NCBI GenBank assembly: GCA_040905475.1
Contig: JBBDRM010000056.1
Span: 1-39,206, forward strand
Length of the DNA stretch: 39,206 bases
Direction: 5' to 3'
Origin: Actinomycetota bacterium
GTDB lineage: Bacteria > Actinomycetota > AC-67
The notes below the pieces were generated by a model. The model was given only the letters and a program-made list of their open reading frames with translations. It was not told the DNA's origin and did not search any database. A program made the position numbers and the translations under genes. Positions 15,418 to 26,042 of the stretch are shown piece after piece; the first letter of the stretch is position 1, and every line of letters begins with the position of its first letter.

Positions 15418-15446
15418 TTGACACTGCCTACCGGCGCTGGCAGAAT
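15418..15446 (+). promoter_or_regulatory. ilv leader promoter, TTGACA-17-CAGAAT
   Basis: TTGACA at 15418-15423, a 17-base spacer, and CAGAAT at 15441-15446. The leader peptide ATG begins 9 bases after the -10 hexamer, so the transcript would start at or within a few bases of the start codon. The same boxes, the same spacer and the same GGCAGAATCGC context occur in front of the leuA leader at 24319. Confidence 0.85.
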
Positions 15447-15455
15447 CGCGCCACT

Positions 15456-15503
15456 ATGCTTTCTAGGGAGGCCTTTTCGGCGAGCGTCCTCGTAGTTATC
15501 TGA
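15456..15503 (+). CDS. ilv operon leader peptide (MLSREAFSASVLVVI)
   Basis: A 15-residue reading frame directly after a consensus promoter. It ends in the codons for Ser-Val-Leu-Val-Val-Ile, so five of the last five residues are branched-chain amino acids, the products of the pathway downstream. It is followed by a GC-rich hairpin and an intrinsic terminator. This is the standard layout of a ribosome-mediated attenuation leader: stalling at Val/Leu/Ile codons under starvation would favour readthrough into the structural genes. The start has no ribosome site and would be read from a near-leaderless transcript. Confidence 0.85.
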   Translation: MLSREAFSASVLVVI

Positions 15504-15504
15504 C

Positions 15505-15533
15505 CACGCGCGGCCCCGCGGGGCATGCGCGTG
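15505..15533 (+). promoter_or_regulatory. ilv leader hairpin upstream of terminator
   Basis: CACGCGC (15505-15511) pairs perfectly with GCGCGTG (15527-15533), and the inner GCCCC/GGGGC arms extend the stem. It begins 1 base after the leader stop codon. In an attenuator this would be the pause or protector hairpin that a stalled ribosome leaves intact or alters. No clear antiterminator pairing was worked out. Confidence 0.65.
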
Positions 15534-15535
15534 AA

Positions 15536-15560
15536 CCTCTCGGCCGCCGAGGGGTTTTTT
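15536..15560 (+). terminator. ilv attenuator terminator
   Basis: CCTCTCGG (15536-15543) pairs with CCGAGGGG (15547-15554) around a three-base loop, with one G-U pair, and is followed at once by six T (15555-15560). It is an intrinsic terminator placed between the leader peptide and the first structural gene. Confidence 0.85.
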
Positions 15561-15607
15561 GTTAGGTCGATCCTTTCACCCGCCGAGGGTGAAATGTGGA
15601 GGTTGTG

Positions 15608-16204
15608 ATGGGCAGGACGGCACTGGTGATCGTGGACATGCAGAACGACATGGCGCACGCCGACGGCCGGGCACCCATCATCGACGCCGTCCATAAAGCC
15701 CCGGTGATGAACGCGATCCTCGACGCGTTTCGGGAAGCGAAAGAGCCGGTTATCCATGTCGTGCGCTCCTACCGGGCCGACACCTGGGACGTCGAGCGCT
15801 TCCGCGTCCCGTTCTTCCAGAACGACCGCGGCTTCCTGGTCGAGCGCACCTGGGGTGCACAGATCATCGACCGCCTGGTTCCCGAGCCCGGCGAGCCCGT
15901 CGTGGTGAAGCAGCGCTTCAGCGGCTTCGCGTTCACCGAGCTCGACCTTCTGCTCCGCCGCGCCGGGGTCACCAAGATCGTCGTCGTCGGCGTCAACCTG
16001 CCGAACTGCCCGCGCACCACGATGTACGACGCGGTCGGGCTCGACTACGACGTCGTCGCGGTGGCCGATGCGCTCGCAACCACTAGTGACGAGACGCATC
16101 GCATCAACCTGCAGGACCTCAGCGCCATCGGCGTGCGGATCGCGACCGCGGACGAGGTCATCCGCGAGATCGCACGCGCGTCGGACCGGATCTCGAACAA
16201 CTAA
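15608..16204 (+). CDS. Isochorismatase-family cysteine hydrolase
   Basis: 198 residues. The family triad is visible: Asp10 (VIVDMQNDM), Lys101 ([10 protein letters not shown]) and Cys134 ([15 protein letters not shown]). Members hydrolyse amides or vinyl ethers, for example nicotinamidase, N-carbamoylsarcosine amidase or isochorismatase; the substrate here is not deducible. The ATG at 15608 has GGAGG 5 bases upstream; an in-frame GTG at 15596 would place the ribosome site inside the gene. It lies between the ilv attenuator and ilvB, with 17 bases to ilvB, and would thus be expressed with the ilv genes. It has no known role in branched-chain amino acid synthesis. Confidence 0.88.
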
Positions 16205-16221: not shown

Positions 16222-17976
16222 GTGAAGATCACCGGAGCACAGGCAATGGTCCGCTCGCTCGAGCAGGAGGGCGTCGAGGTGATCTTCGGCATCCCGGGCG
16301 GCGCCATCCTGCCCGCGTACGATCCGATCCTCGACTCGCCGATCCGCCACATCCTGTGTCGGCACGAGCAGGGTGCCGCGCACGCCGCCGACGGATACGC
16401 GCAGGCGACCGGCGAGCCCGGCGTCTGCATGGCGACCTCGGGGCCCGGTGTGACGAACCTCGTCACCGGCCTCGCGAGCGCCTACATGGACTCGATCCCG
16501 ATGGTGGCGATCTCGGGTCAGGTCCCGACGTGGGCGGTCGGTGGCGACGCGTTCCAGGAGTGCGACGCGACCGGGATCACGATGCCGGTCACCAAGCACA
16601 ACTTCCTGGTGATGGACGCGCAAGAGATTCCCAAGACCATCGCGGAGGCGTTCCATATCGCGCGAACCGGTCGGCCGGGCCCGGTTCTGGTCGACATCCC
16701 CAAGGACGTCCTCCAAGCGGAGATGGCGTGGTGGTACCCGGAAGAGGTCGACCTCCCCGGATACCGGCCCGTCACCAAGGGCAACCCCAAGCAGATCCGC
16801 GAGGCGGCCAAGCTGATCCTGTCCGCTCGGCAGCCGATCCTCTATACGGGCGGCGGGATCATCCGCGCCGGGGCGGCCGACGAGCTTCGCCGGCTTGTCG
16901 AGCTCACCGGCATACCGACCGTGACGACGCTGATGGGCCGCGGCGGGATCCCCGACGACCACGAGCTGTGTCTCGGCATGCCGGGCATGCACGGCAACTA
17001 CACGGCGGTCACGGCGATGCAGAAGGCCGACCTGCTGGTGTCGCTCGGCGTGCGCTTCGACGACCGCGTCACCGGCAAGCTCGCCACGTTCGCGCCCGAC
17101 GCCAAGATCATCCACGCCGACATCGACCCGGCCGAGATCGGCAAGAACAGAGCGGTCGATGTGCCGATCGTCGGCGACGCGCGCTCGGTCATCCACGAGC
17201 TCAACGAGATCCTCGAGGCCATGATCGAGGAGCGCGGCCTCCCCGACTACTCGGCGTGGGTCAAGACGGTCCAGGGCTGGCAGAAGAAGTACCCCTACAA
17301 GTACTCGCAGACCGCCGACGGTCCGCTCAAGCCCGAGTACGTGATCGAGCAGATCGGCAAGATCACCAAGGGCGACGGGGTCTACGTCGCCGGCGTCGGC
17401 CAGCATCAGATGTGGGCGTCGCAGTATCTGCGCTTCAAGCGCCCGAACACGTGGCTGAACTCCGGTGGGCTCGGCACGATGGGGTACGCGGTGCCCGCCG
17501 CGATGGGTGCCAAGGTCGGACGTCCCGACGAGCAGGTCTGGGCCATCGACGGCGACGGCTGCTTCCAGATGACCTGCCAGGAGCTCGCGACGATGACGAC
17601 CGAGAACATCCCCGTCAAGATCGCGATCATCAACAACGCGTTCCTCGGTATGGTGCGGCAGTGGCAGGAGCTGTTCTACGACAACCGCTTCTCGGCGGTT
17701 GAGTTCGGCTACGACGTGCCCGACTACGTGAAGCTCGCCGAGGCCTACGGCGCGATCGGGCTGCGCTGTGAGACGCCGGAGGAGGTCGAGTCGACCATAC
17801 GCAAGGCGGCCGAGATCGACGACCGGACCGTCGTCATGGACTTCCGCGTCGACCCGACGGAGAAGTGCTACCCGATGGTGCCGGCCGGTGCGTCGAACGA
17901 CGAGATCATCCTCGGGCCGGAATTCGAGAAGGACCACGCCGACATCCTCCACGACACCCCGGAGGCGATCATCTGA
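16222..17976 (+). CDS. ilvB: Acetolactate synthase large (catalytic) subunit
   Basis: The ThDP- and FAD-dependent enzyme that condenses pyruvate with pyruvate or 2-ketobutyrate, the first shared step of Val/Leu/Ile synthesis. The ThDP glutamate is Glu49 ([15 protein letters not shown]). The Mg/ThDP motif runs from GDG at 444-446 to the NN at about 471-472. The family-typical GIPGGAILP at the N-terminus and [16 protein letters not shown] near the C-terminus are present. The 584-residue length is normal. The GTG start follows GGGGAG at 16209-16214. The stop shares one base with the ilvN start. Confidence 0.97.
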
Positions 17977-22544: not shown

Positions 22545-24112
22545 AGGTGCTCGTCACCGAGCCGATCGCTGAGGCGGGGATCGAGTCCCTCCGGGCCGAG
22601 GCGACCGTCGACCTCCGGACCGATCTCACGCGCGCGCAGCTGCTCGAGATCATCGGCGATTACGACGCGCTCATCGTGCGCTCGCAAACGGTCGCCGACG
22701 CCGAGCTGATCGAGAAAGGCCGCAACCTCAAGGTGATCGGCCGGGCGGGGATCGGGCTCGACAACGTCGACGTCGACGCGGCCACGCGGCACGGGATCGT
22801 CGTCGTCAACGCACCGACCTCGAACGTCCTGTCCGCCGCCGAGCACGCGATGGCGCTGATGCTCTCGCAGGCGCGGAACATCCCGGCGGCGAATGCGTCG
22901 GTCAAGAGCGGGAAGTGGGAGCGTGGCAAGTTCGAGGGCGTCGAGCTGCACGGCAAGACGCTGGCCATCCTCGGGCTCGGGCGCATCGGGACGCTCGTGG
23001 CGCAGCGCGCGCTGGCGTTCGGGATGCGGGTCGTCGCCTACGACCCCTACGTCGCGAAGCAGCGCGCCGGGCAGATGGGCGTCGAGCTGGCAGATCTCGA
23101 CGAGGCCTTGCGCGTCGCCGACTTCGTCACGATCCACCTGCCGAAGACGACCGAGACCTCGGCGTTGATCGGCGCGCGGGAGCTCGGGCTGATGAAGCCC
23201 GGAGCGCGGCTGGTGAACACCTCGCGCGGCGGGATCGTGGACGAGGACGCGCTGGCCGCCGCGGTCGCCGACGGGCGGCTGGGCGGGGGAGCGCTGGACG
23301 TTTTCGCCCAAGAACCGCCGGACGCGGGATCGCCCTTGTTCGGCCTCGACACCGTGGTGCTGACGCCGCATCTCGGCGCCTCGACCGAGGAAGCGCAGGA
23401 GAAGGCCGGCGCCGCGATCGCCGAGCAGGTGGGCCTGGCGCTGCGCGGCGAGCTGGCCCCGTACGCGGTGAACGTCGACGCCGGCCGCGAGCTGTCCGAT
23501 GTGGTACGGGCGTTCCTGCCGCTCGCGGAGAAGCTCGGCCGCATCCTCACCGCGCTGTCCGGCGGCCACGCGCACGAAGTGCGGTTCTCGTACCAGGGGC
23601 AGATCGCCGATCACGACACCCGCGTTCTGACGCTCGCCGGGCTGAAGGGGATGTTCGCCGCGATCATGCACGAGCCGGTGACCTTCGTGAACGCGCCGCT
23701 GATGGCGAAGGAACGTGGGATCGAGTACGGCGAGATGAAGAGTGCGATGTCCCGCGACTACGTCAACCTGATCGAGGTGTCGGCCGGCGATGGGATCGCC
23801 GTCGCCGGGACGCTGGTCGGCGTGCGGAACGAGGAGCGGCTCGTGCGGATCTTCGACTTCGAGGTGGACTTCCCGCCGGGCCCGAACATGTGCTTCCTGC
23901 GCTACGACGACCGGCCGGGCGTGATCGGAGCGATCGGCACGATCCTCGGGCGAACGGGTGTGAACATCGCGGACATGCGCGTGGGCCGCCAGGAGAAAGG
24001 CGGCGAGGCGTTGATGTGCATCACGGTCGATCAGCCGATCGAGCCGGATGTGCTGAAGGAGCTCGTCGAAGGCTCGGAAGCCAAGGACGCGAAGGTCGTC
24101 ACGCTGGGTTAG
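22541..24112 (+). CDS. serA: D-3-phosphoglycerate dehydrogenase
   Basis: Oxidises 3-phosphoglycerate with NAD, the first step of serine synthesis. The 523 residues fit the long actinobacterial type. The catalytic/NAD domain carries GLGRIG near residue 146, the substrate arginine in NTSRGGIVDEDAL, and the active-site histidine in LTPHLGAST. An intervening ASB domain spans about 320-450, and a C-terminal ACT domain starting at CFLRYDDRPGVIG probably senses serine. The ATG overlaps the stop of the Rieske-like gene. No attenuator or serine-specific leader precedes this unit. Confidence 0.97.
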   Translation: MKVLVTEPIAEAGIESLRAEATVDLRTDLTRAQLLEIIGDYDALIVRSQTVADAELIEKGRNLKVIGRAGIGLDNVDVDAATRHGIVVVNAPTSNVLSAAEHAMALMLSQARNIPAANASVKSGKWERGKFEGVELHGKTLAILGLGRIGTLVAQRALAFGMRVVAYDPYVAKQRAGQMGVELADLDEALRVADFVTIHLPKTTETSALIGARELGLMKPGARLVNTSRGGIVDEDALAAAVADGRLGGGALDVFAQEPPDAGSPLFGLDTVVLTPHLGASTEEAQEKAGAAIAEQVGLALRGELAPYAVNVDAGRELSDVVRAFLPLAEKLGRILTALSGGHAHEVRFSYQGQIADHDTRVLTLAGLKGMFAAIMHEPVTFVNAPLMAKERGIEYGEMKSAMSRDYVNLIEVSAGDGIAVAGTLVGVRNEERLVRIFDFEVDFPPGPNMCFLRYDDRPGVIGAIGTILGRTGVNIADMRVGRQEKGGEALMCITVDQPIEPDVLKELVEGSEAKDAKVVTLG

Positions 24113-24306
24113 GCATCACTGCCCTGGATGCGTTCAATGTTCTCGGTAAGGCTGAGTTTGCGACCGAGGGCTCGGCCGGGTTCGAAGGGCGCATCCTCGA
24201 TCTCCAGCAGCGGCGCGCCGAGCGATGCCCAATCCGGATCGTCAACGGTCTTTATCTGACCGCGATCCTGCCCGCCATGCCCGGCAGCCCGTGCCCATGA
24301 TGCCAC
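24109..24306 (-). CDS. Possible small protein, unrecognised
   Basis: An open frame of 65 residues from a GTG at 24306, or 67 from a TTG at 24312. The product looks like a soluble protein (VDDPDWASLGAPLLEI, FEPGRALGRKLSLTENIERI) and shows no homology I can name. Its stop overlaps the serA stop from the opposite strand. It lacks a clear ribosome site, and its upstream region coincides with the leuA leader promoter. It could be a real small gene, the remnant of a larger one, or chance. If not coding, this 200-base stretch holds nothing else recognised. Confidence 0.3.
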   Translation of the reverse strand: MASWARAAGHGGQDRGQIKTVDDPDWASLGAPLLEIEDAPFEPGRALGRKLSLTENIERIQGSDA

Positions 24307-24318
24307 CGGCAAAACTCG

Positions 24319-24347
24319 TTGACACCCATCACGGCTCCTGGCAGAAT
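24319..24347 (+). promoter_or_regulatory. leuA leader promoter, TTGACA-17-CAGAAT
   Basis: TTGACA at 24319-24324, a 17-base spacer and CAGAAT at 24342-24347, identical in both boxes and spacing to the ilv leader promoter at 15418. The leader ATG again follows 9 bases after the -10. Confidence 0.85.
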
Positions 24348-24356
24348 CGCCGAACC

Positions 24357-24401
24357 ATGACGTCCACGAGGATCCATCGGTCGGCGCTGCTCCTGCTTTG
24401 A
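24357..24401 (+). CDS. leuA leader peptide (MTSTRIHRSALLLL)
   Basis: A 14-residue frame ending in four consecutive leucine codons (CTG CTC CTG CTT) directly before the stop. It lies between a consensus promoter and a hairpin-terminator pair upstream of leuA. This is the expected sensor of leucyl-tRNA charging in ribosome-mediated attenuation. As with the ilv leader, the start codon has no ribosome site and would sit at the very 5' end of the transcript. Confidence 0.87.
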   Translation: MTSTRIHRSALLLL

Positions 24402-24403
24402 CG

Positions 24404-24429
24404 GCGCGCTCGCCTTTCGGCGTGCGCGC
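24404..24429 (+). promoter_or_regulatory. leuA leader hairpin upstream of terminator
   Basis: GCGCGCTCGCC (24404-24414) pairs with GGCGTGCGCGC (24419-24429) around a TTTC loop, with a single T-T mismatch. It starts 2 bases after the leader stop, the same position as the GC-rich hairpin of the ilv leader. Confidence 0.7.
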
Positions 24430-24431
24430 TA

Positions 24432-24455
24432 CCCCTCGGATACGGGGGGTTTTTT
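24432..24455 (+). terminator. leuA attenuator terminator
   Basis: CCCCTCG (24432-24438) pairs with CGGGGGG (24443-24449) around a GATA loop, with one G-U pair, followed by six T (24450-24455). It is an intrinsic terminator 45 bases upstream of the leuA start. Confidence 0.85.
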
Positions 24456-24500
24456 GTTGGTCCGGATAGGCTAGGCAGAATCCAAAGGGAGGCGTTGAAA

Positions 24501-26042
24501 GTGACGGACAACCGCGTTCGGATCTTCGACACGACGCTACGGGACGGCGAGCAGTCGCCGGGGATCAATCTCAACGTCAAGGAGAAGCTCGAGATCGCGG
24601 AGCAGCTAGCCCGCCTCGGCGTCGACATCATCGAGGCCGGTTTCCCCGTCACGTCGCCCGGGGACTTCGAGTCGGTATCGGCGATCGCCCAGACCGTCAA
24701 GGGCCCGGGCATCGCAGCCCTCGCTCGCGCGCACGACCAGGACATAGATCGAGCCTGGGAGGCCGTCCAGCACGCGCGGCAGCCGCGGATCCACGTCTTC
24801 CTGTCGACCTCCGACATCCACCGCAAGTACATGCTCAACGCGACCGAGGACGAGATCCTCGCCCAGGCGGTCGCCGGCGTCGAGCGTGCGAAAGGCTACT
24901 GCGAAGACGTCGAGTTCTCGCCGCAGGACGCGACGCGAACCGAGCCCGAGTTCTTGTTCAAGATCGTCGACGCGGCGGTCGCGGCCGGCGCGACCACGAT
25001 CAACATCCCCGACACGGTCGGCTACGCGATCCCGTACGACTTCGGCGAGCTGATCCGCGAGTGCTACAAGGCGGTGCCGCGCCTCGCCGATGTGATCGTG
25101 TCGGTGCACTGCCACAACGACCTCGGGCTCGCGGTATCGAACTCGATCGAAGCCGTCCGCGCCGGCGCCCGGCAGGTCGAGGTCGCCATCAACGGCATCG
25201 GCGAGCGGGCCGGGAACTGCTCGCTGGAGGAAGTCGTGATGGCGATCAAGATGCGCCACGACCTGCTCGGGGTCGAGACCGGCGTCAACACGAAGGAGCT
25301 CGCGCGCTCGTCGCGGCTCGTCACGCTGCTGACCGGCTACCAGGTCCAGCGGAACAAAGCGATCGTGGGGGAGAACGCTTTCTCACACGAGTCGGGGATC
25401 CACCAGCACGGCGTGATCCAGGACCGGCTGACCTACGAGATCATCAAAGCCGAGGACATCGGGGTCGAGGGCGGCAAGATCGTGCTCGGGAAGCACTCGG
25501 GACGGCATGCGTTCTCGAAGACGCTCGAGGAGATGGGCTTCCAGCTCGGCAAGGAAGAACTGAATCGCGCCTTCGCGCGGTTCAAGGAGCTGGTGGATCG
25601 CAAGATCCAGATCTCCGACAAGGACCTCGAGGCGATCGTCGCGGACGAGATCCAGACCGTCGAGGAGGTCTACCGCCTGGAAGCCCTACAGGTCACCGGC
25701 GGCACCCACCTCTCGCCGACGGCGACCGTGAAGATCGTGAAGAACGGCGAATCCATCCAGGAGTCCGCGATGGGCGACGGGATGGTAGACGCGGCTTTCG
25801 GCGCGATCATGCGCGCCACGAGCGTCGATGCCAAGCTCTGGTCGTTCAACGTCGCGGCGGTCACCGAAGGCTCCGAAGCACTCGGCGACGTGACCGTTCA
25901 GATCGAGGTCGAGGGCGAGCGCTTCACCGGCCGAGGCATCTCGACGGACATCGTGGAGGCGAGCGCGCGCGCTTTCCTCAACGCGCTGAACCGGGCCGCG
26001 CGACGCGGTCACTCGCCTAGATCGGCGCAGCCGACGCCTTAG
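24501..26042 (+). CDS. leuA: 2-isopropylmalate synthase
   Basis: Condenses acetyl-CoA with 2-ketoisovalerate, the committed step to leucine. The 513 residues show the DRE-TIM barrel: FDTTLRDGEQSPG with the catalytic Arg14-Asp15, the metal ligands in VHCHNDLGLAVSNS, and NGIGERAGNCSLEEVV. HESGIHQHGV and LGKHSGRHAF in the communication region follow, then a C-terminal regulatory domain from about residue 390 that binds leucine. The leucine-codon leader upstream supports leuA rather than citramalate synthase. The GTG at 24501 is chosen because GGGAGG (24487-24492) is 8 bases before it; the TTG at 24495 is too close. The stop overlaps the convergent GNAT-like gene by 4 bases. Confidence 0.96.
   Translation: MTDNRVRIFDTTLRDGEQSPGINLNVKEKLEIAEQLARLGVDIIEAGFPVTSPGDFESVSAIAQTVKGPGIAALARAHDQDIDRAWEAVQHARQPRIHVFLSTSDIHRKYMLNATEDEILAQAVAGVERAKGYCEDVEFSPQDATRTEPEFLFKIVDAAVAAGATTINIPDTVGYAIPYDFGELIRECYKAVPRLADVIVSVHCHNDLGLAVSNSIEAVRAGARQVEVAINGIGERAGNCSLEEVVMAIKMRHDLLGVETGVNTKELARSSRLVTLLTGYQVQRNKAIVGENAFSHESGIHQHGVIQDRLTYEIIKAEDIGVEGGKIVLGKHSGRHAFSKTLEEMGFQLGKEELNRAFARFKELVDRKIQISDKDLEAIVADEIQTVEEVYRLEALQVTGGTHLSPTATVKIVKNGESIQESAMGDGMVDAAFGAIMRATSVDAKLWSFNVAAVTEGSEALGDVTVQIEVEGERFTGRGISTDIVEASARAFLNALNRAARRGHSPRSAQPTP

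What the first reader, a model, noticed from the sequence alone, without database searches (positions are those of the whole stretch)
24319..24455. leuA attenuator with four terminal leucine codons
The leader MTSTRIHRSALLLL precedes a hairpin and an intrinsic terminator 45 bases upstream of leuA. The run of Leu codons marks a leucine-specific sensor and supports the leuA assignment over citramalate synthase.
Basis: partly seen in the sequence, partly recalled or inferred. Interest (0 to 1): 0.65.

Follow-up and report, generated by a model that had tools for sequence, protein, structure and literature searches.

The report
Leucine-sensing attenuator before leuA
A tiny leucine-rich gene followed by an RNA stop signal sits just before the leucine-synthesis gene leuA and most likely switches it on when leucine runs short; it is an unrecorded example of a known kind of bacterial switch and closely matches a second one in the same stretch of DNA before the ilvB genes.

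Summary
Window 24319-24456 contains a sigma-70-like promoter, an ORF encoding MTSTRIHRSALLLL* (24357-24401), a GC hairpin that starts just after the stop codon, and an intrinsic terminator ending about 45 nt before leuA (24501). The gene is leuA, not citramalate synthase: 714.8 bits against TIGR00973 (cutoff 598.7), 227.5 against TIGR00977 (cutoff 450), and the genome has a separate cimA. A covariance model built without any sequence from the window's family still finds the site (34.6 bits, E 4.6e-7 in the window), and also a second one at 15489-15565, an LVVI* leader before the ilv genes. Both hairpins covary. Best reading: ribosome-mediated transcription attenuation of the actinobacterial ilvB type, carried over to leuA. 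Published actinobacterial leuA leaders are reported to lack a terminator. Weak point: folding predicts the terminator at probability 0.98 whether the ribosome stalls or not, so the antiterminator step is inferred. No expression data exist. A new member of a known kind.

The parts
24319..24347 (+). sigma-70-like promoter TTGACA-17-CAGAAT with TG before the -10
   Evidence: same boxes before the ilv leader
24357..24401 (+). leader ORF MTSTRIHRSALLLL*, predicted leaderless
24387..24398 (+). four leucine sensor codons CTG CTC CTG CTT, directly before the stop
24403..24430 (+). hairpin H1, proposed antiterminator; its 5' arm lies under a ribosome at the stop codon
24431..24456 (+). intrinsic terminator: 8-pair stem 24431-24450 and T tract
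24484..24492 (+). Shine-Dalgarno-like AAAGGGAGG of leuA
   Evidence: sequence
24501..26042 (+). leuA, 2-isopropylmalate synthase (regulated gene)
15418..15446 (+). promoter TTGACA-17-CAGAAT of the second, ilv attenuator
15456..15503 (+). ilv leader ORF MLSREAFSASVLVVI*
15505..15533 (+). hairpin H1 of the ilv attenuator
15533..15561 (+). terminator of the ilv attenuator (shares one base with H1)
16222..17976 (+). ilvB, acetolactate synthase large subunit, behind the ilv attenuator
   Evidence: TIGR00118 802 bits, cutoff 538

Best explanation
This is a ribosome-mediated, leucine-responsive transcription attenuator of leuA. Transcription starts at or a few bases before the ATG, and a ribosome translates the 14-codon leader directly from the 5' end (inferred from promoter spacing). 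When charged leucyl-tRNA is plentiful, the ribosome runs to the TGA. Its footprint then covers the 5' arm of H1, H1 cannot form, the terminator hairpin forms undisturbed and transcription stops before leuA. When leucyl-tRNA is scarce, the ribosome stalls on CTG CTC CTG CTT, its leading edge ends near the stop codon, and H1 folds. Because H1 abuts the terminator, it hinders the terminator and RNA polymerase reads on into leuA. Shown here: the parts, their conservation, their covariation and the match between sensor codons and gene. Inferred: leaderless start, stalling, termination, and above all the way H1 opposes the terminator. The element is of the same class as the ilvB attenuator 8.9 kb upstream (LVVI*), and the two probably arose by copying followed by codon change.
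For: Parts. Gene identity. A model without the window's family finds the site. Sensor-gene match in the 64 of 72 model hits that could be assigned: 33 of 34 leuA and 3 of 4 leuS read LLL, 24 of 25 ilvB hold Val/Ile, 1 of 1 cimA is Ile-Ile-Ile. Covariation: 94.7% of cells paired against 75.5% in shuffles, all 18 pairs with changes on both sides (the alignment is fitted to the model, so it leans that way). Geometry: H1 starts 2-4 nt after the first base of the stop in 43 of 63, and H1 and terminator meet within 1 nt in 36 of 63. Leaderless layout: 31 of 64 have a promoter of 8 or more of 12 with the -10 ending at most 12 nt before the start; shuffles mean 0.7, max 4 (real starts were chosen among candidates, shuffled ones were not). 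The sensor prefers rare CTT: 42 of 99 codons against 7.8 expected from the host leuA genes, max 18 in 2000 simulations. LVVI-to-AAAA abolished induction of the Mtb ilvB1 attenuator (PMC13236596, section 10 part 1). In E. coli a terminator beyond about 30 bp past a stop codon works fully (PMC4824070, section 9); here the spacing is 29 nt.
Against: Folding gives terminator probability 0.98 for the window both with the ribosome stalled and at the stop, and means of 0.96 and 0.96 over 63 elements, so thermodynamics shows no mutually exclusive antiterminator. Same-family G001 has no attenuator before leuA. Mutations in S. coelicolor ilvB and leuA leader codons gave results not consistent with classical attenuation (as cited in PMC1262725). 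No transcript or ribosome data exist for this organism. Most model hits are Leu partly because the model was trained on Leu leaders; the link to the downstream gene is not affected by that.
Confidence: 0.84

Rival explanations
1. LEU-element type translational control: the leucine codon run pairs with the leuA Shine-Dalgarno, and a ribosome stalled on the run frees it. The terminator would be secondary.
For: The minimum-energy fold pairs CUCC and CUUUG of the leader with GGAG and CAAAG of the leuA SD region. Such a base stem is described for leuA in other Actinobacteria (PMC1262725, parts 1-2 of 3).
Against: Over the 9 bacterial-type elements, pairing of leader codons with their own SD region is no stronger than with swapped ones: mean -7.2 against -7.5 kcal/mol. 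The terminator is conserved and covaries, which this model does not need. For some of the nine the 40-nt region may miss the true SD because starts were taken from the alignment.
Confidence: 0.07
2. The ORF is not read and the site is only a constitutive terminator or a small RNA with its own promoter.
For: The hairpins are very stable on their own. No expression data exist. A weak sub-threshold Rfam match to an sRNA (anti-hemB, 24.2 bits, cutoff 49.5) was seen.
Against: The sensor codons track the downstream gene across genomes, stop codon and hairpin keep a fixed register, and the sensor uses rare CTT. None of these is expected of an untranslated terminator.
Confidence: 0.04
3. Reverse logic: H1 helps termination or marks a pause, and the ribosome at the stop codon promotes readthrough.
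For: Folding does not show H1 opposing the terminator, and ribosomes close to a terminator can repress it (PMC4824070, abstract and section 9).
Against: It would switch leuA off when leucine is short. The stop-to-terminator spacing of 29 nt is about where that repression ends in E. coli. The Mtb ilvB1 attenuator with an LVVI sensor is induced when BCAA synthesis is inhibited.
Confidence: 0.05

Closest known systems
M. tuberculosis ilvB1NC attenuator (PMC13236596)
   Same: Short BCAA leader ORF with sensor LVVI, ribosome at the stop proposed to mask the antiterminator, intrinsic terminator before the gene; the window's own ilv leader also ends LVVI*.
   Different: Senses several BCAAs and controls ilvB; here the run is Leu only and the gene is leuA. 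An explicit antiterminator fold is proposed there; none stands out here.
C. glutamicum ilvBNC attenuator (PMC11857589)
   Same: Antiterminator and terminator hairpins sit side by side and share boundary bases; translation starts one nucleotide from the transcript start; CUU is a control codon.
   Different: Three-hairpin model with an antiantiterminator; here two hairpins, with zero overlap in the window.
Actinobacterial leuA leaders / LEU element (PMC1262725; S. lividans leuL1 in PMC8079986)
   Same: Leader peptide with a Leu run before leuA, leaderless in S. lividans.
   Different: Reported to lack a typical intrinsic terminator; here a clear, covarying terminator is present.
Streptomyces leuS attenuator (leuL2, PMC8079986; PMC1262725)
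   Same: Leaderless leader with LLL, hairpin and U stretch. In this set 4 model hits before leuS were found (LLLT, LLLR, LGLM, LLLT).
   Different: Gene is leuS, and in leuL2 the Leu run lies four codons before the stop.
Enterobacterial leu operon attenuator (recalled)
   Same: Four consecutive Leu codons and a terminator before leuA.
   Different: Recalled: long leader, Leu run well before the stop, separate 1:2, 2:3 and 3:4 pairings; those alternative pairings are not evident here.

Membership tests
Ribosome-mediated transcription attenuator (amino acid leader peptide) | Short ORF with a run of codons for the end product of the regulated pathway | tested here: met
   MTSTRIHRSALLLL* before leuA; sensor-gene match over 64 elements
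Ribosome-mediated transcription attenuator (amino acid leader peptide) | Intrinsic terminator between leader ORF and gene | tested here: met
Ribosome-mediated transcription attenuator (amino acid leader peptide) | Antiterminator mutually exclusive with the terminator | tested here: inconclusive
   H1 abuts the terminator but folding gives terminator probability 0.98 in both ribosome states
Ribosome-mediated transcription attenuator (amino acid leader peptide) | Readthrough rises on starvation for the sensed amino acid | not testable with these tools
   needs reporter or RNA data
Actinobacterial ilvB-type attenuator | Leader stop codon at the foot of a hairpin that directly precedes the terminator | tested here: met
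   H1 starts 4 nt after the first base of the stop, zero gap to the terminator; one model finds both leuA and ilv sites
LEU element of actinobacterial leuA | Leu codon run paired with the leuA Shine-Dalgarno as a conserved base stem | tested here: not met
   own pairing -7.2 against swapped -7.5 kcal/mol over 9 elements
LEU element of actinobacterial leuA | Conserved pseudoknot between Leu run and SD | not tested
   the pseudoknot was not modelled; only the base stem was tested
T-box | T-box sequence and specifier stem | tested here: not met
   no Rfam family reached its gathering score in the window

The most novel reading that the evidence does not exclude
One compact RNA chassis (leaderless mini-ORF ending in three sensor codons, hairpin whose foot is the stop codon, abutting terminator) has been re-aimed several times by codon change alone: Leu for leuA and leuS, Val/Ile/Leu for ilvB, Ile for cimA. 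It would work without a classical mutually exclusive antiterminator: a ribosome-gated hairpin flush against the terminator decides the outcome kinetically or sterically.
Probability: 0.3. Interest if true: 0.6.

Novelty: new member of a known kind. Interest (0 to 1): 0.42.

Why it matters
Published work on actinobacterial leuA leaders stresses a missing terminator and ambiguous regulation (PMC1262725, PMC8079986). Here, in a poorly sampled class and in others of the phylum, leuA carries a full terminator-type attenuator of the ilvB build. That gives a natural series in which the sensor codons change and the chassis stays, so the rule linking codons to gene, and the role of a hairpin flush against a terminator, can be tested directly. 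It also shows that leader codons can help assign LeuA-family genes: Leu before leuA, Ile before the one cimA found.

Tried and rejected
Citramalate synthase for the downstream gene: rejected. LEU-element base stem: no own-versus-swapped signal. Classical mutually exclusive antiterminator: searched by folding in stalled and stop states and not found. Extension of H1 into the terminator foot was looked at by eye and by folding: overlaps of 2 or more nt in 12 of 63, not a rule, and zero in the window. Rfam: no hit at gathering score, weak chance-like hits only. Leu-rich mini-ORFs alone: the reverse strand of the same leuA upstream regions gave 32 of 232 against 74 of 232 on the sense strand, so such ORFs alone are weak evidence; the added hairpin, terminator and gene match make the case. 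Named genomes: among 80 named leuA loci, model R1 found only the Acidimicrobiales AG-414-N20 site strongly (itself a training sequence) and one weak planctomycete site. Papers: five searches listed no paper that I recognised as describing a terminator-type leuA attenuator in this group or an isoleucine attenuator before cimA; this covers only the held open-licence library, and most listed papers were seen in the listing only.

Dropped rows: of 78 places listed, the 7 weakest were not followed. Of 72 hits, 8 were left unassigned: L298, L301 and L304 look like T-boxes by a recalled motif, L275 is cut by a contig end, and L281, L300, L306 and L307 have no assigned gene. L266 gave no geometry. L209 could not be oriented and was left out of the 232; L204 is only 62 bases long and was counted there although almost no upstream DNA was available.

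Full report
What is in the window. A promoter TTGACA-17-CAGAAT lies at 24319-24347, the only promoter-like site in 24100-24600, with a shuffle mean of 0.0. The ATG of a 14-codon ORF, MTSTRIHRSALLLL*, follows 9 nt after the -10 box, so the message is probably leaderless or nearly so. The last four codons are CTG CTC CTG CTT, directly before TGA. Hairpin H1 (24403-24430) begins at the second base after the stop codon. The terminator (stem 24431-24450, then TTTTTGTTGG) begins at the very next base. leuA starts at 24501. In the folding of 24352-24500, 1 of 200 shuffles does as well.

The gene. The protein scores 714.8 bits against TIGR00973 leuA_bact (cutoff 598.7) and 227.5 against TIGR00977 citramalate synthase (cutoff 450), and has the HMGL-like and LeuA_dimer domains. 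The genome has a second member, on contig C128, that is the citramalate synthase (679.9 bits). Its upstream DNA shows no such leader; it follows closely on another reading frame, which looks like an aminotransferase (by eye).

The host. It is unnamed. Only 5 genomes of its class are held. Best named relatives by LeuA are Nitriliruptoraceae and Egibacteraceae, so Actinomycetota is inferred.

Conservation. I screened 232 leuA upstream regions: 30 loci, 80 named loci, and 99 of the 100 fetched. A mini-ORF with three Leu in four residues occurs in 74 of 232, against 32 of 232 on the reverse strand. Nine of these also have a hairpin and a terminator in the same layout: the window, L004 (same family, MSQNLLLT*), L020, L079 (Acidimicrobiales AG-414-N20), L149, L205, L207, L215 and L216. 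The same-family G001 has no leader, its leuA following serA by about 37 nt. Other leuA leaders in the set are of other types, without this terminator (for example ...LLIL* followed by CGCCGCGGGGCGG), and some relatives carry what look like T-boxes (recalled motif).

Model tests. A covariance model from the nine (R1) matched 67 of 396 phylum genomes at E <= 0.05. In the window it found the leuA site and, unexpectedly, 15489-15565 (37.9 bits). A second model (R2), built from the seven sequences outside the window's family, finds both: 34.6 bits, E 4.6e-7, and 25.1 bits, E 1.5e-4. In the run with R2 over the 5 genomes of the class the leuA site was not listed, while the ilv site was, at E 0.016; that run scored 150 of 2883 first-look candidates in this genome.

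The sister element. At 15418-15561 there is the same promoter (TTGACA-17-CAGAAT, with GGCAGAATCGC shared), then MLSREAFSASVLVVI*, H1 and a terminator ending TTTTTTGTTAG, before an isochorismatase-domain gene (PF00857), ilvB and ilvC. The alignment score of the two leaders is 118, against a maximum of 82.5 in 1965 random windows. Common descent inside the genome is therefore likely, although independent copies from a shared older class are not excluded. LVVI is the sensor whose change to AAAA abolished induction of the M. tuberculosis ilvB1 attenuator (PMC13236596, section 10 part 1).

Sensor and gene. I followed 71 of the 78 places, plus L079: 72 hits. 64 could be assigned to a gene: 34 leuA (bacterial type, or a type at about 23-30% identity of which one, L263, was checked and is the yeast-type leuA), 4 leuS, 25 ilvB and 1 cimA. 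Val or Ile in the three sensor codons: 0 of 38 for leuA/leuS, 24 of 25 for ilvB (Fisher p 1.6e-16; the exception, L284, reads LLLV), and 1 of 1 for cimA (IIIP*, 667 bits TIGR00977). Nine of the leuA set were used to train the model and were picked for Leu; without them the count is 0 of 29 (subtraction, not a separate call). Leu sensors use CTT in 42 of 99 codons, 7.8 expected from the host leuA genes; the model mildly favours CTT, but in the nine training sequences, chosen on amino acids, it is 13 of 27 (counted by hand).

Structure. Over the 72 hits 94.7% of cells pair (shuffled 75.5%), all 18 pairs change on both sides somewhere, and sliding the partner by 1-3 columns drops pairing to 37-62%. 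The alignment is fitted to the model and includes a few spurious rows. H1 starts 2-4 nt after the first base of the stop in 43 of 63; H1 and terminator meet within 1 nt in 36 of 63 and exactly in 22. The stop codon is TAG in 54 of 64, TGA in 7 and TAA in 3; the G of TAG often starts H1. A promoter of 8 or more of 12 with the -10 ending at most 12 nt before the start is seen in 31 of 64; 6 of 64 gave no start or promoter.

How it works. A ribosome on the first Leu codon has its leading edge near the stop codon (about 12 nt past the first base of the A-site codon; recalled), so H1 is free. A ribosome on the stop codon covers the 5' arm of H1. The 29 nt from stop to terminator is close to the 30 bp beyond which a ribosome at a stop codon no longer represses a terminator in E. 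coli (PMC4824070, section 9). So the geometry lets the ribosome at the stop block H1 but not the terminator, which gives the sensible direction: leucine present, termination; leucine short, H1 and readthrough. This matches the model proposed for Mtb ilvB1 and the side-by-side hairpins of C. glutamicum ilvBNC (PMC11857589, passages). What I could not show is how H1 opposes the terminator: equilibrium folding gives terminator probability 0.98 in both states for the window, and means of 0.96 in both over 63 elements. A kinetic or steric effect is inferred.

Against published leuA leaders. Earlier work describes Leu-run leaders before leuA in Actinobacteria without a typical terminator, with a possible pseudoknot and a Leu-run:SD stem (PMC1262725, parts 1-2 of 3; PMC8079986, passages; C. 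glutamicum four Leu codons, PMC4046766, passages). The window's lowest-energy fold also shows a Leu-run:SD pairing, but it is not a feature of the class. The new point is a leuA leader of the ilvB terminator type. Five paper searches did not show this described; that is a limited library.

Verdict. It is an ordinary kind of regulator with a tidy comparative story and one unsolved mechanical point.

Noticed in passing
window 15418-15561: A second attenuator, MLSREAFSASVLVVI* with hairpin and terminator, before the ilvB-ilvC genes; its promoter is nearly the same as that of the leuA leader.
   Followed up: yes
window 15608-16204: An isochorismatase-domain gene sits between the ilv attenuator and ilvB; in G001 and G003 the ilvB match also begins only about 530-630 nt after the attenuator, so the order may be shared.
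   Followed up: partly
L310 (G033:C1:2700500-2702489): A citramalate synthase gene preceded by a leader ending IIIP* with hairpin and terminator: a candidate isoleucine-specific attenuator of cimA.
   Followed up: partly
L255, L259, L267, L276: Same attenuator chassis with LLLT, LLLR, LGLM and LLLT leaders before leuS.
   Followed up: partly
L024, L026, L031, L038, L040-L051 upstream of leuA: Another leuA leader type: longer peptides ending LLIL or LLLL, mostly followed by CGCCGCGGGGCGG-like and CCCCCCGCGGAG-like stretches, no T tract; likely a translational element.
   Followed up: no
L071, L073, L074, L202, L212, L219, L220, L221: leuA leaders ending in a Leu run plus PLRGE or PPRGE before a GGCGGC hairpin, in Conexibacter and relatives; the conserved tail after the Leu run is unexplained.
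   Followed up: no
L007, L018 upstream of leuA: A conserved stretch encoding LLILRCRGA or SLLILRCRGA overlapping a long hairpin in f13 genomes.
   Followed up: no
sensor codons of 33 leuA elements: The rare codon CTT is used 42 of 99 times, above all as the third sensor codon (22 of 33), and the stop is TAG in 54 of 64 elements.
   Followed up: partly
G002 (same family): No LeuA match at E <= 0.001 in a 94% complete genome; possible loss of leucine synthesis.
   Followed up: no
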